Shown: positions 8,862 to 20,402 of the stretch, piece after piece
Layout of the letters: every line of letters starts with the position of its first letter
Position numbering within the stretch: the first letter of the stretch is position 1
NCBI RefSeq assembly: GCF_004168205.1
Contig: NZ_RCYB01000022.1
Coordinates: forward strand, 1-29,762
From: Catenibacterium sp. co_0103
GTDB lineage: Bacteria > Bacillota_I > Bacilli_A > Erysipelotrichales > Coprobacillaceae
Reading direction: 5' to 3'
DNA length: 29,762 nt
Program-made: the position numbers and the translations under genes
The notes under the pieces: generated by a model
The model's input: the letters and a program-made list of their open reading frames with translations, nothing else
What the model was told of the DNA's origin: nothing
Databases searched by the model: none

Positions 8862-9515
8862 ATGGAAAAACTATTATGCCCATCTATGATGTGTGCTAAT
8901 TTTGGCCATTTAGAAACAGAAGTAAAAGAGTTAGTGGATGCTGGAATTGATATCTTTCATCTAGATATTATGGATGGAAGTTTTGTGCCTAATTTTGGAA
9001 TGGGATTACAGGATGTGGAATATATCTGTAAAAAATCTACGAAACCATGTGATGTTCATCTTATGGTTGTTAATCCTGGGGATTATGTAGAAAAGTTTGC
9101 TTCATTGGGGGTAAGAATCATCTATATTCATCCTGAAACAGATAAACATGCATGTCGTACATTACAGAAGATTAAAGACGCAGGTGTGCATCCTGGAATT
9201 GCAGTAAACCCAGGAACATCTTTTGAAACAGTCAAAGAACTATTACATCTATGTGATTATGTTATGCTAATGTCTGTTAACCCAGGATTTGCTGGTCAGA
9301 AATATTTAGATTTTGTAACACCTAAGTTTAAGAAGTTTGTCGATGAGTCAAATAACTATGGTGGTTATGATGTTATGATTGATGGTGCTTGTTCACCAGA
9401 AAAGATACATGATTTATCTAAAATTGGTGTTAAAGGATTTATTTTAGGTACAAGTGCGTTATTTAATAAGGGACGTCCTTATAGTGAAATTATACCAGAA
9501 CTTAGAAAAGTGTAG
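8862..9515 (+). CDS. AlsE-like D-allulose-6-phosphate 3-epimerase (ribulose-phosphate 3-epimerase family)
   Basis: A 217-residue TIM-barrel ketose-phosphate 3-epimerase. Metal and catalytic residues are visible: Ser8 in CPSMMC, His33 and Asp35 in FHLDIMDGSFVPN, His66 in VHLMV, and Asp174 in MIDGACS. Details favour AlsE (D-allulose-6-P to fructose-6-P) over housekeeping Rpe. The second Asp motif is IDGACS, as in AlsE VDGSC, rather than VDGGI. IHPET, VNPGFAGQ and GTSALF also match AlsE-style wording. It is the first gene after the dyad and operator of promoter 1, with AAGGGG before the ATG, and is followed after 12 nt by an RpiB-like isomerase. That pair is the core of the allose pathway. Rpe activity cannot be excluded. 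Confidence 0.8.
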   Translation: MEKLLCPSMMCANFGHLETEVKELVDAGIDIFHLDIMDGSFVPNFGMGLQDVEYICKKSTKPCDVHLMVVNPGDYVEKFASLGVRIIYIHPETDKHACRTLQKIKDAGVHPGIAVNPGTSFETVKELLHLCDYVMLMSVNPGFAGQKYLDFVTPKFKKFVDESNNYGGYDVMIDGACSPEKIHDLSKIGVKGFILGTSALFNKGRPYSEIIPELRKV

Positions 9516-9527
9516 GAGGATATGTAA

Positions 9528-9983
9528 ATGAAAATTGGTATTGGTAATGACCATGTAGCAGTTAGCTACAAGAATGAAATTAAGTCTTATATTGAAGAAA
9601 AGTATGGCTATGAAGTAGTGAATTTCGGTACAGATAGTACTGAAAGATTTAATTATCCAGTAGCTGGTGAAGCAGTCGCAAATGCTGTAGTAAGTGGTGA
9701 AGTAGATAAAGGAATTGTTATTTGTGGTACTGGTGTTGGTATCTCTTTAGCTGCAAATAAAGTAAATGGTATTCGTTGTGTAACATGTAGTGAGCCATAT
9801 TCTGCATTGTTATCAAGACAGCATAATAATACAAATATGCTTGCATTTGGTGCACGTGTCGTTGGTATTGAACTAGCTAAAATGATTGTTGATGCATGGT
9901 TAAGTGGTGAATATGAAGGCGGTCGTCATCAGGTGCGTATTGATATGCTAAAAGAAATTGAGGAAAGACAAAAGCACCATTAA
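9528..9983 (+). CDS. RpiB/LacAB-family sugar-phosphate isomerase (AlsI candidate)
   Basis: A 151-residue aldose-ketose isomerase of the RpiB family, which includes ribose-5-P isomerase B, allose-6-P isomerase and the galactose-6-P isomerase subunits LacA and LacB. Visible are IGNDHVA at the phosphate-binding N-terminus, the catalytic Cys66 in ICGTGVGIS, and RQHNNTNMLAFGARVVG. RpiB of E. coli is known to isomerise allose-6-P as well as ribose-5-P. A LacAB role is less likely, because only one subunit is present and no tagatose-6-P kinase or aldolase is nearby. Next to the AlsE-like epimerase, conversion of allose-6-P to allulose-6-P is the best guess. A terminator hairpin overlaps the end of the gene. 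Confidence 0.87.
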   Translation: MKIGIGNDHVAVSYKNEIKSYIEEKYGYEVVNFGTDSTERFNYPVAGEAVANAVVSGEVDKGIVICGTGVGISLAANKVNGIRCVTCSEPYSALLSRQHNNTNMLAFGARVVGIELAKMIVDAWLSGEYEGGRHQVRIDMLKEIEERQKHH

Positions 9984-9994
9984 GGTGCTTTTTT
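9970..9994 (+). terminator. Intra-operon terminator at the end of the isomerase gene
   Basis: AAAAGCACC pairs with GGTGCTTTT across an ATTAA loop, followed by more T residues. The hairpin includes the last codons and the stop codon. Genes continue on the same strand 12 nt later, so it probably lowers rather than abolishes downstream expression, favouring the epimerase-isomerase pair. Confidence 0.7.
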
Positions 9995-18309: not shown

Positions 18310-18935
18310 TGCTAGAAAAGATAAGAACGTTAAATCCAGATTACCAAATTAATGAACTTGATGATTCGTTTAAAGAATATGGACGAATCATCAAGCAAGA
18401 TATGCAAGAAGCCATCAATTATGCTACAACTTATCAAAATACAAATGCCTATGATACAAGTGTTCAAGCATTAGAAGAAATGCCTTGTATACAAGATTTA
18501 ATTAATGATATTTATGGTTATTTAGATGTCATGGCAGGTGTAGTTACTGGTAAAAATGAAGTATTAAATGGGTTGGAATATCATCAATGCAGTGAAACAA
18601 TCATTGCGGTGACAGACTATATTCTTGCTCTTGGAAAAAGACAAGATATGGAAGAAAATGACTATGACATAGATAAGTGCGAACTTTTCTATGTACCAAA
18701 AGGAACAGTCGTAGAACTCTATGCAACAACATTACACTATACACCAATAACAGTAAAAGATTCATTTAAAACAATCTGTTTATTATTAAGAGGAACAGGG
18801 GATAGTTGTCAAAGAAGAGGAATCCTAAAGAAAAAGAATAAATGGTTCATAGCACATAAAGATAATGTAGAAAAAGTACAAGCAGGAGATTATCCTGGTT
18901 TAAAAGGCAAAATGATTCGTATTAAATATTTATAA
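18309..18935 (+). CDS. DUF4867-like protein (cupin-like)
   Basis: A 208-residue soluble protein that I place, from memory, in the DUF4867 family found beside sugar-phosphate genes of Bacillota. The N-terminal part is helical. The C-terminal part has cupin-like strands, with KCELFYVPKGTVVELYATTL followed by LHYTPITV and FKTICLLLRGTG. It starts on the last base of the preceding stop codon, so it is translationally coupled to GH1 B, and GH1 C follows after 12 nt. A similar fold occurs in ureidoglycolate lyase and some sugar isomerases. An isomerase, epimerase or sugar-binding role is possible, but no function can be read from the sequence. Confidence 0.68.
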   Translation: MLEKIRTLNPDYQINELDDSFKEYGRIIKQDMQEAINYATTYQNTNAYDTSVQALEEMPCIQDLINDIYGYLDVMAGVVTGKNEVLNGLEYHQCSETIIAVTDYILALGKRQDMEENDYDIDKCELFYVPKGTVVELYATTLHYTPITVKDSFKTICLLLRGTGDSCQRRGILKKKNKWFIAHKDNVEKVQAGDYPGLKGKMIRIKYL

Positions 18936-18947
18936 GGAGGAAAGAAA

Positions 18948-20402
18948 ATGGCAATACCTGATAAATTTTTATGGGGTGGTTCAATTAGTGCTGCTCAATG
19001 TGAAGGTGGATGGGACGAAGGTGGAAGAAGTCCTGTTCAAGTAGATTTTGGAGATTCGGGTTCAACAACAGATATACGTTGGATTCATTACTTAAATGCA
19101 GATGGAACAAGAGGAAAAATGAGGCAATTTGAGCATTTACCTAAAGGAGCTAAATATCAATTATTCGATGATATTCGTTATACAAATCATGTTGGTATTG
19201 ATTTTTATCATCGTTATAAAGAAGATATTGCATTATTTGCAGAGCTTGGTTTTACAACTTTCAATACAACAATTTCATGGGCAAGAGTTTATCCTCATGG
19301 AGTAGAAGGAGGGGTCAATCAAGAAGGTGTAGAATTCTATCGTAATGTATTTAAAGAATGTCGTAAATATGGCATTGACCCTGTCATTACATTATATAAA
19401 TATGACGAACCTGTGTATTTAGAAGAAACATATGGTGATTGGACGAATAGAGAAATGATTCATCAATTTGTTGAATTCGCAAGGTTATGTTTTGGTGAAT
19501 ATAAAGGTTTAGTAGATAAATGGTTAACTTTTAATGAAATTAATATTTTATTACATTTTGATGGTAAAGAAGGAAAACAATTTGCTTTTGAAGAATTACA
19601 TAATCAAATGGTAGCGGCAGCTAAAGCTGTTAAAGTAGCACATGAAATTGATAAAAATATTTCAGTAGGATGTATGATTGCAGGATTCTGTAGTTATCCA
19701 TATACTTGTGATCCTGAAGATGTAATTGAAAATTATAAACAATTCCAAGAAAAATTTGCTTATTGTGCAGATACAATGGTAAGAGGATATTATCCGTCTT
19801 ATGCCAAACGTATTTGGAAGCAGAATAATGTTGTTTTAGATATTAGTGAAGAAGATAAAAAAGATTTGATAGAAGGTAAATCTGACTTCCTAGCTTATTC
19901 ATATTATATGTCTAACGTAGTAACAACACATAAAGATGCAGGAGAAGCTTTAGATGGTGCAGGAACTTCAGCAAACTTAAAAAATCCATATTTAACAGCA
20001 TCTGATTGGGGATGGCAAATTGATCCAACTGGCTATGAATACTTTTTACATGTCTTAAATGATCGTTATCAAGTACCTATTTTCGATGTCGAAAATGGTC
20101 TAGGAGCTTATGATAAAGTAGAAGAAGATGGCTCTATTCATGATGATTATCGTATTAATTATCACAGAAGTCATATTAAGAGCTTAATGAAAGCAAGAGA
20201 AGAAGGCGTTAATATTTTTGGATATACTTCTTGGGCTCCAATCGATTTGGTTTCATTTACTACAGGACAAATGGATAAACGTTATGGATTTATCTATGTA
20301 GATATGAATGATGAAGGTAAAGGAGATTTACATCGAAGTAAAAAAGATTCATTTTATTGGTATCAAAAAGCAATAAAATCTGATGGAAAAGACTTAGACT
20401 AA
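18948..20402 (+). CDS. GH1 6-phospho-beta-glycosidase C, with altered -1 subsite
   Basis: A 484-residue GH1 enzyme with AAGGAGG before the ATG. Acid/base Glu197 (LTFNEINI), nucleophile Glu382 (FDVENGLGAY) and the phosphate-binding loop (LVSFTTGQMDKRYGFIYVD) are intact. It shares with A and B the Asn in place of Arg (Asn106, FNTTISWARVYPHG) and the Lys in place of His (Lys151, LYKYDEP). N-terminal wording (GGSISAAQCEGGWDEGG) and the C-terminus are closest to A, suggesting a duplication within the locus. It ends unit 2 and is followed by a perfect 15-bp inverted repeat. Confidence 0.9.
   Translation: MAIPDKFLWGGSISAAQCEGGWDEGGRSPVQVDFGDSGSTTDIRWIHYLNADGTRGKMRQFEHLPKGAKYQLFDDIRYTNHVGIDFYHRYKEDIALFAELGFTTFNTTISWARVYPHGVEGGVNQEGVEFYRNVFKECRKYGIDPVITLYKYDEPVYLEETYGDWTNREMIHQFVEFARLCFGEYKGLVDKWLTFNEINILLHFDGKEGKQFAFEELHNQMVAAAKAVKVAHEIDKNISVGCMIAGFCSYPYTCDPEDVIENYKQFQEKFAYCADTMVRGYYPSYAKRIWKQNNVVLDISEEDKKDLIEGKSDFLAYSYYMSNVVTTHKDAGEALDGAGTSANLKNPYLTASDWGWQIDPTGYEYFLHVLNDRYQVPIFDVENGLGAYDKVEEDGSIHDDYRINYHRSHIKSLMKAREEGVNIFGYTSWAPIDLVSFTTGQMDKRYGFIYVDMNDEGKGDLHRSKKDSFYWYQKAIKSDGKDLD

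What the first reader, a model, noticed from the sequence alone, without database searches (positions are those of the whole stretch)
8862..20402. Candidate PTS-linked pathway for beta-allosides (or another C3-modified glucoside)
Seen: an AlsE-like epimerase and an RpiB/AlsI-like isomerase head an operon containing three unusual GH1 6-phospho-glycosidases, and share promoter architecture with a PTS EIIC operon. Known: allose catabolism runs allose-6-P to allulose-6-P (RpiB/AlsI) to fructose-6-P (AlsE), and AlsK makes allose-6-P from free allose. Inferred: a PTS would deliver an already phosphorylated alloside, so a 6-phospho-beta-allosidase would replace the kinase step. No allose ABC transporter or kinase is visible. 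Plant allosides such as helicid and mint-family flavonoid allosides could be natural substrates. I know of no described system with this gene set.
Basis: partly seen in the sequence, partly recalled or inferred. Interest (0 to 1): 0.85.

Follow-up and report, generated by a model that had tools for sequence, protein, structure and literature searches.

The report
Likely gut pathway for plant allosides
A gut bacterium seems to carry a gene set for eating plant compounds decorated with the rare sugar allose, using sugar-cutting enzymes whose normally fixed sugar-gripping histidine has been swapped, which makes a neglected kind of plant-compound digestion testable.

Summary
At 8862-20402 a LacI-flanked operon carries an epimerase, an RpiB-type isomerase, three GH1 enzymes, DUF7916, DUF4867, three Gfo/Idh proteins, VOC and HAD. 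A PTS EIIC operon beside it shares a two-site promoter.

(2) The operon GH1s keep both catalytic Glu and the 6-phosphate site, but a GH1 histidine that binds the -1 sugar (O3 by recall) is Lys. The Lys type is one clade. The Listeria cassette GH1 belongs to a second clade with Ala there (119 of 120 listed relatives). (3) Lys-type GH1 tracks the AlsE-like epimerase: 27 of 34 genomes versus 23 of 260 others in one order (p=3e-18), 4 of 4 versus 13 of 223 in another.

Best reading: PTS-imported 6-phospho-beta-allosides are cut by dedicated GH1s to allose-6-P, then isomerised and epimerised to fructose-6-P. No enzyme was assayed; His-type GH1s also sit in some of these loci, and the Gfo/Idh genes are unexplained.

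The parts
7635..8666 (-). LacI-family regulator, divergent from the operon
   Evidence: PF00356/PF13377; 42% identical to the LacI of the Listeria D-allose cassette
8762..8780 (.). 19-bp palindrome ATGGCATAATATGTGCCAT, putative regulator site
   Evidence: identical copy at 22528; TGGCA-N7-TGCCA also at AlsE promoters of genomes G001 and G002
8833..8844 (.). GTAAACGTTTAC, LacI/cre-like operator
   Evidence: 4 such sites (up to 1 mismatch) in the window, all at the three promoters
8862..9515 (+). AlsE-like allulose-6-P 3-epimerase (predicted)
   Evidence: PF00834; 61% identical to the Listeria cassette epimerase; apart from housekeeping Rpe in a tree
9528..9983 (+). RpiB/AlsI-type allose-6-P isomerase (predicted)
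   Evidence: PF02502, TIGR01120 above cut-off; 62% identical to the Listeria cassette protein
10000..10971 (+). Gfo/Idh/MocA oxidoreductase 1, role unknown
   Evidence: PF01408, PF22725; only generic PDB matches
10961..11470 (+). VOC/glyoxalase-fold protein, role unknown
   Evidence: PF00903; within 10 kb of Lys-type GH1 in 11 of 36 records
11474..12409 (+). DUF7916 protein, homologue of the Listeria cassette TIM-type protein
   Evidence: PF25509; 54% identical; AlphaFold pLDDT 89.7
12419..13444 (+). Gfo/Idh oxidoreductase 2, YhhX-like
   Evidence: NF007574 at 351.2 bits, cut-off 352; closest PDB 3f4l YhhX
13446..14441 (+). Gfo/Idh oxidoreductase 3, role unknown
   Evidence: PF01408; generic PDB matches
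14437..15171 (+). HAD-IIB phosphatase-like protein
   Evidence: PF08282
15175..16641 (+). GH1A, predicted 6-phospho-beta-allosidase; Lys at codon 15631-15633
   Evidence: LYKYDEP; catalytic Glu and S-K-Y phosphate site kept
16693..16711 (.). degenerate palindrome before GH1B
   Evidence: 1 mismatch to TGGCA-N7-TGCCA; 71 bp before the site at 16765
16765..16776 (.). GAAAACGTTTAC operator-like site before GH1B
16834..18309 (+). GH1B, predicted 6-phospho-beta-allosidase; Lys at codon 17299-17301
   Evidence: LYKYDMP
18309..18935 (+). DUF4867 cupin, possible mutarotase/ring-opening helper
   Evidence: PF16161; PDB 9gyy E 6e-40; role proposed in PMC11968277
18948..20402 (+). GH1C, predicted 6-phospho-beta-allosidase; Lys at codon 19398-19400
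20405..20440 (.). hairpin at the operon end
   Evidence: inverted repeat read
20492..22513 (-). PRD/Mga-type PTS-responsive regulator
   Evidence: PF00874, PF05043 above cut-off, PF00359 below
22444..22455 (.). GAAAACGTTTAC site, PRD side of the intergenic region
22528..22546 (.). second identical 19-bp palindrome
22601..22612 (.). GAAAACGTTTAC site before EIIC
22656..23960 (+). PTS EIIC, lactose/cellobiose family
   Evidence: TIGR00410 259 bits, cut-off 236
24902..25828 (+). class I mannose-6-P isomerase (ManA)
   Evidence: TIGR00218 above cut-off; PDB 1qwr
25841..27262 (+). GH1D, His-type 6-phospho-glycosidase
   Evidence: LVHFDMP, canonical His kept

Best explanation
A PTS-linked regulon for beta-D-allosides. 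A lactose/cellobiose-type EIIC (22656) imports plant beta-allosides and phosphorylates O6 (inferred). GH1A-C are 6-phospho-beta-allosidases: normal retaining GH1 catalysis and 6-phosphate recognition, but a His that binds the -1 sugar in ordinary GH1 enzymes is Lys (with Arg to Asn elsewhere in the active-site region), reshaping the pocket for the axial O3 of allose (residue change shown; consequence inferred). Allose-6-P is isomerised by the RpiB-type enzyme to allulose-6-P and epimerised by the AlsE-like enzyme to fructose-6-P (homology to genes required for D-allose growth in Listeria). DUF4867 may assist anomer or ring interconversion (inferred). The LacI and PRD regulators co-control both operons through the shared two-site promoter (sites shown, binding inferred). 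The three GH1 paralogues would differ in aglycone (inferred).
For: Homology to the Listeria D-allose cassette: LacI 42%, epimerase 61%, RpiB 62%, DUF7916 54%; lmo0734-0736 are required for growth on D-allose there. Residue change: all 120 listed relatives (of 7989 hits) are Lys; among 252 aligned GH1s over 400 aa only Lys (136) or His (116) occur; the Lys sequences are one clade (146 of 146, support 1.0, motif columns removed) sister to His-type GH1s. Relatives of the Listeria cassette GH1: 119 of 120 Ala, 1 Cys, a second clade (122 of 122, support 1.0), also sister to His-type GH1s. Linkage, 294 genomes of one order: AlsE-like epimerase in 27 of 34 genomes with a Lys-type GH1 confirmed by reading and 23 of 260 others, p=3e-18; with the strict DNA motif alone 24 of 32 against 26 of 262, p=5e-15, and 19 of those 24 have both on one contig, 18 within 7 kb (one of the epimerase copies is partial, G276). 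Coriobacterial order: 4 of 4 against 13 of 223, p=2e-5. Minimal units: genome G558 has LacI, Ala-type GH1, AlsE, RpiB; Listeria seeligeri plasmid pLIS5 has LacI, AlsE, RpiB, DUF4867, Lys-type GH1 plus EIIC and Ala-type GH1. Shared promoter.
Against: No assay exists. His-type GH1s also lie near AlsE: within 8 kb in 36 AlsE-centred loci, K 12, A 1, H 10 GH1s; within about 1.5 kb in 57 loci, K 8, A 2, H 4, cut 11. The His-type sister clade (IWHFDTP) is itself next to AlsE in a few genomes, so the link may predate the Lys. Seven of the 34 Lys-type genomes lack a full AlsE-like hit (G015 partial, G093, G117, G120, G173, G195, G264). Lys with Arg-to-Asn might only relocate charge. Three Gfo/Idh, VOC, HAD and DUF7916 have no assigned step. 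EIIA/EIIB were not recognised in the window. The curated AlsE model is below its cut-off.
Confidence: 0.6

Rival explanations
1. The GH1s are ordinary 6-phospho-beta-glucosidases of unusual aglycones; the epimerase and isomerase in the same regulon serve free D-allose or pentose phosphates, grouped only because plant material brings these sugars together.
For: Several AlsE(-RpiB)-PTS loci show no GH1 in the stretch read (Vagococcus L083, L. paracasei L085, E. raffinosus L086, L. plantarum L087, and L121, L122, L127-L130, L135). His-type GH1s also occur in these loci. lmo0739 was dispensable for D-allose growth.
Against: It does not explain why two separate GH1 clades at these loci both lost the same His (120 of 120 Lys; 119 of 120 Ala, 1 Cys), nor the minimal LacI-GH1-AlsE-RpiB unit.
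Confidence: 0.22
2. The substrate is a different C3-altered glucoside, for example a 3-keto-glucoside-6-phosphate: Gfo/Idh enzymes oxidise or reduce C3 and the Lys-type GH1 accepts the 3-keto or 3-substituted sugar, with allose-6-P one outcome of 3-keto reduction.
For: Three Gfo/Idh proteins in the operon; their relatives lie within 10 kb of Lys-type GH1 in 9 (Gfo1), 12 (Gfo2) and 11 (Gfo3) of 36 records; weak similarity to sugar 3-ketoreductases and DgpA-type proteins.
Against: No Gfo/Idh relative was found in minimal loci (pLIS5, L004, L132, L249); matches to named 3-dehydrogenase models are far below cut-off.
Confidence: 0.13
3. The operon handles pentose phosphates: RpiB and the epimerase act as ribose-5-P isomerase and ribulose-5-P epimerase for a pentoside pathway.
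For: The family models name RpiB and Rpe.
Against: In all 7 genomes checked a separate housekeeping-type Rpe exists (31-38% identity, at most 139 bits, against 252-416 bits for the accessory copies); the closest relatives with genetics are required for D-allose.
Confidence: 0.05

Closest known systems
[quoted passage not shown]
   Same: Divergent LacI, AlsE-like epimerase, RpiB, DUF7916, PTS EII and a GH1 lacking the -1 His.
   Different: EIIABC of beta-glucoside type in the same operon; one Ala-type GH1 instead of three Lys-type; no Gfo/Idh, VOC, HAD or DUF4867. Described for free D-allose; the paper says no study gives the GH1 a role there.
Escherichia coli als operon with rpiB
   Same: Same end reactions: allose-6-P to allulose-6-P to fructose-6-P (established knowledge).
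   Different: ABC transporter AlsBAC and kinase AlsK supply allose-6-P; none here. The epimerase is only 34% identical.
GH1 6-phospho-beta-glucosidases (BglA, S. mutans 3pn8/4f79, S. pneumoniae BglA-2)
   Different: -1 His is Lys, a conserved Arg is Asn.
SftX/SqvD DUF4867 cupins of sulfoglycolysis (PMC11968277)
   Same: DUF4867 family, proposed aldose/ketose mutarotase or ring isomerase.
   Different: Here beside allose-type enzymes, not sulfoquinovose enzymes; function unproven in both.

Membership tests
Listeria-type PTS D-allose cassette | LacI, epimerase, RpiB and DUF7916 homologues together | tested here: met
   42, 61, 62 and 54% identity, same neighbourhood
Listeria-type PTS D-allose cassette | beta-glucoside EIIABC in the same operon | tested here: not met
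   EIIC of lactose/cellobiose family in an adjacent operon
Listeria-type PTS D-allose cassette | confers growth on D-allose | not testable with these tools
   needs culture or expression
E. coli als pathway | ABC transporter and AlsK kinase in the locus | tested here: not met
   not among the window's ORFs and families; present in K-12
AlsE equivalog NF007266 | curated cut-off 271 bits | tested here: not met
   174.8 bits
RpiB equivalog TIGR01120 | curated cut-off 138.65 bits | tested here: met
   189.5 bits
GH1 6-phospho-beta-glycosidase | two catalytic Glu and S-K-Y phosphate site | tested here: met
GH1 6-phospho-beta-glucosidase | His of the -1 subsite | tested here: not met
   Lys in GH1A, B and C; His kept in GH1D
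6-phospho-beta-allosidase (proposed) | preference for 6-phospho-beta-allosides | not testable with these tools
   needs purified enzyme and substrate

The most novel reading that the evidence does not exclude
GH1 gave rise to dedicated 6-phospho-beta-allosidases at least twice (a Lys clade and an Ala clade), marked by loss of the -1 His and built into mobile AlsE-RpiB-PTS cassettes. The window is a full regulon for epimeric plant beta-glycosides: C3 epimers through GH1A-C plus AlsI/AlsE, and C2 epimers through GH1D plus ManA.
Probability: 0.5. Interest if true: 0.78.

Novelty: new variant of a known kind. Interest (0 to 1): 0.68.

Why it matters
No paper holding the term 6-phospho-beta-allosidase, or alloside together with 6-phospho, was found in the held library, although allosyl flavone glycosides are reported as prominent phenolics of Sideritis herbs (PMC7464829, passages seen). 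If true, this gives a substrate to annotated '6-phospho-beta-glucosidases' in gut Erysipelotrichaceae-type bacteria, Coriobacteria and Listeria/lactic acid bacteria, offers a role for the unexplained GH1 of the Listeria D-allose cassette, and gives a one-residue marker for predicting alloside use from genomes.

Tried and rejected
Considered and rejected: (a) AlsE/RpiB as the only pentose-phosphate enzymes: each of the 7 genomes has a separate Rpe. (b) Chance linkage: rejected by counts in two orders. (c) Tree driven by the motif itself: columns 152-154 and 108 were removed before tree building. (d) K and A clades as one event: they do not form a joint split, and each is sister to a His-type group (trees rooted at midpoint). 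(e) DUF7916 function from fold: a TIM barrel with weak matches to many families (TM about 0.5), no function assigned. (f) The 50 VIA-align rows for GH1C are beta-glycosidases by title; this shows fold, not specificity. (g) The plasmid search with the Listeria GH1 gave few close relatives; no Ala-type was verified beyond Listeria among its 30 listed hits of 164 records. (h) The Rfam (gathering threshold) and tRNA scans of the window were empty. (i) Paper searches for His121/Gln20 gave one useful passage (PMC4322223: Gln20, Trp409, His121, Asn165 and Glu354 hydrogen-bond the -1 glucosyl); that this His contacts O3 specifically is recalled, not read.

Limits of counts. groups sequences by the residue itself, so its 136 and 116 are only tallies; ORFs up to 400 aa were dropped, among them an Ala-type one in L007. 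One search scored at most 5 GH1 candidates per genome, so Lys status in the 294-genome sample was taken from a DNA pattern (48 genomes matched, 32 of them with Glu or Met at the variable codon; reversed-pattern control 10 matches). Reading the sites: of the 32, one (G049) has no GH1 there; of the 16 non-strict genomes one (G286) has a Lys-type GH1; G099 and G141 were missed by the pattern and confirmed by reading; total 34. The strict count was run before this reading and is reported beside it. In the coriobacterial sample Lys status rests on matches at E up to 1e-200 only. One search was given 48 of the 73 loci L008-L080; 13 of these 48 genomes had a full AlsE-like hit. In one search, 27 of 36 Lys-type records had AlsE or RpiB within 10 kb; three of them (G025, G036, G044) and G037 were first noticed through AlsE loci, several contigs were shorter than 10 kb, and the window is not counted. 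Of the 36 AlsE-centred loci, 20 come from genomes chosen through a GH1 hit. The Listeria record used (NCTC7974) is taken as the lmo0734-0739 cassette from gene order; the paper's own sequences were not compared.

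
Full report
What is there. The window (29,762 bp, 27-35% G+C in 1.5-kb steps) is not from a held genome; its closest named relatives are Coprobacillus/Stoquefichus-type gut bacteria. Searches give, after a divergent LacI gene (7635-8666), a run of twelve + strand genes: PF00834 epimerase, PF02502 isomerase, Gfo/Idh, VOC, DUF7916, YhhX-like Gfo/Idh, Gfo/Idh, HAD-IIB, GH1A, GH1B, DUF4867, GH1C. 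A hairpin follows (20405-20440). Then come a PRD regulator (-) and EIIC, two zinc-ribbon proteins, ManA, GH1D and a split esterase. Spacing inside the first run is tight except 192 bp before GH1B.

Promoters. Three promoter regions carry the same pair of sites: TGGCA-N7-TGCCA at 8763, 16694 (one mismatch) and 22529, and an AAACGTTTAC site at 8833, 16765 and 22601, with offsets of 70, 71 and 72 bp. The 12-mer GTAAACGTTTAC with up to one mismatch occurs four times in the window, all in these regions (the fourth at 22444). A fourth near-palindrome (19370, one mismatch) lies inside GH1C without such a site. The palindrome also lies in the AlsE promoter of genomes G001 and G002; 1.94 Mb of loci plus window hold 11 copies, 6 of them at AlsE or EIIC promoters when overlapping loci of one place are counted separately. 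So the two operons look like one regulon; LacI and PRD binding is inferred.

Epimerase and isomerase. The epimerase is no closer to E. coli AlsE (34%) than to Rpe (33%), and misses the curated AlsE cut-off. It groups with the epimerase of the Listeria monocytogenes cassette (61%) and 26 other accessory epimerases, apart from housekeeping Rpe, and that group shares with E. coli AlsE, against Rpe, Met10, Cys11 and Ala144 (26 to 28 of 28). All 7 genomes in which the first scan found the operon's GH1 type (L001-L007) carry this epimerase (252-416 bits) plus a distinct Rpe (at most 139 bits). RpiB is 62%, DUF7916 54% and LacI 42% identical to the Listeria cassette proteins. In that cassette lmo0734-0736 are required for growth on D-allose, lmo0737-0738 affect growth rate and the GH1 lmo0739 is dispensable (PMC5893763, abstract and passages).

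Linkage. In 294 genomes of one order, 50 carry the AlsE-like epimerase (E up to 1e-50) and 32 carry the strict motif LYKYD[EM]P or FYKYD[EM]P. Both occur in 24 (24 of 32 against 26 of 262; p = 5e-15); 19 of those 24 have both on one contig, 18 within 7 kb. Reading every matched site leaves 34 genomes with a Lys-type GH1: 27 of 34 against 23 of 260, p = 3e-18. In 227 genomes of a coriobacterial order, 17 have the epimerase and 4 have a confirmed Lys-type GH1 at the profile threshold; all 4 have the epimerase (p = 2e-5). Of 36 genomes or records with Lys-type GH1 read, 27 have AlsE or RpiB within 10 kb. As a control, none of the 73 loci L008-L080 brought in by His-type GH1s showed an AlsE-like gene in the held flanks and one showed RpiB (flanks up to 10 kb, often shorter).

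Ala type. In the order of G006 26 of 246 genomes match the Listeria GH1 at E up to 1e-120; the two best (G427, 100%; G558, 68%) are Ala-type, and of the other 26 matches 25 are His-type and one was unreadable. In the order of G003 6 of 294 match at E up to 1e-125, 5 of them Ala-type. AlsE lies within about 5 kb of an Ala-type GH1 in G427, G558, G079, G092, G099, pLIS5 and G788, and not locally in G002 and G093.

Minimal systems. G558 shows, of the genes sought, only LacI, Ala-type GH1, epimerase and RpiB (a second LacI-family gene lies beyond). Listeria seeligeri plasmid pLIS5 has LacI, epimerase, RpiB, DUF4867 and a Lys-type GH1 80% identical to GH1C, with an EIIC and an Ala-type GH1 opposite. 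These make the Gfo/Idh, VOC, HAD and DUF7916 genes accessory.

Against. His-type GH1s are common near the epimerase as well (10 of 23 GH1s within 8 kb in 36 AlsE-centred loci; 4 of 14 readable ones in 57 short loci), and the sister clade of the Lys type (IWHFDTP) sits next to it in G013, G025 and G284. Seven of 34 Lys-type genomes lack a full epimerase hit, one of them (G015) with a partial gene at a contig end. No biochemical datum exists; a charge swap without change of sugar cannot be excluded.

Mechanism (inferred unless cited): PTS import and 6-phosphorylation of a beta-alloside; GH1A-C release allose-6-P; the RpiB-type enzyme makes allulose-6-P; the AlsE-like enzyme makes fructose-6-P. 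Axial O3 of allose points towards the face where the nucleophile and, by recall, the lost Arg lie, which would fit Arg to Asn making room and Lys giving a new contact. DUF4867 proteins are metal cupins proposed as aldose/ketose mutarotases or ring isomerases, though no such activity was detected there (PMC11968277, passages). Natural substrates exist: Sideritis flavone allosyl-glucosides, many acetylated (PMC7464829, passages). Searches for 6-phospho-beta-allosidase and for alloside with 6-phospho gave no paper; allose with 6-phospho-beta-glucosidase gave five, of which from the listing only the Listeria D-allose paper has allose in its title.

Noticed in passing
window 27371-28575: An esterase (EstA Ig-like N-terminal part, then alpha/beta-hydrolase part) is split between two overlapping frames at a run of ten AT units (27716-27735); this may be phase-variable or a sequencing slip. 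Sideritis allosides are often acetylated, so an esterase here could matter.
   Followed up: partly
window 2141-7622: Restriction-modification island next to the sugar operon: AspBHI/Mrr-type endonuclease, C5-cytosine methylase, MutH/Sau3AI-type enzyme and Vsr.
   Followed up: partly
window 22656-27262: EIIC, ManA and GH1D form a recurring module beside the AlsE operon in related genomes (L116, L170, L171, L173, L255); GH1D with ManA suggests a 6-phospho-beta-mannoside branch.
   Followed up: partly
L116, L168, L170, L172, L192, L255: A further distant GH1 with motif TIHFDMP (about 37-39% identity) recurs beside Gfo1 in these operons.
   Followed up: no
L286, L290, L292, L293, L295, L296: In coriobacterial genomes the AlsE-like epimerase lies next to a ManA relative with no RpiB found in the 20-kb stretch.
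   Followed up: no
L083-L087: AlsE(-RpiB)-PTS units sit on plasmid records of Vagococcus, Staphylococcus, Lacticaseibacillus, Enterococcus and Lactiplantibacillus, some typed as conjugative.
   Followed up: partly
G001 C3:2885-4336 (L141): One Lys-type GH1 copy carries an in-frame stop, so a paralogue may be decaying there.
   Followed up: no
window 64-807: IS3-type transposase part (integrase core) at the window start.
   Followed up: no
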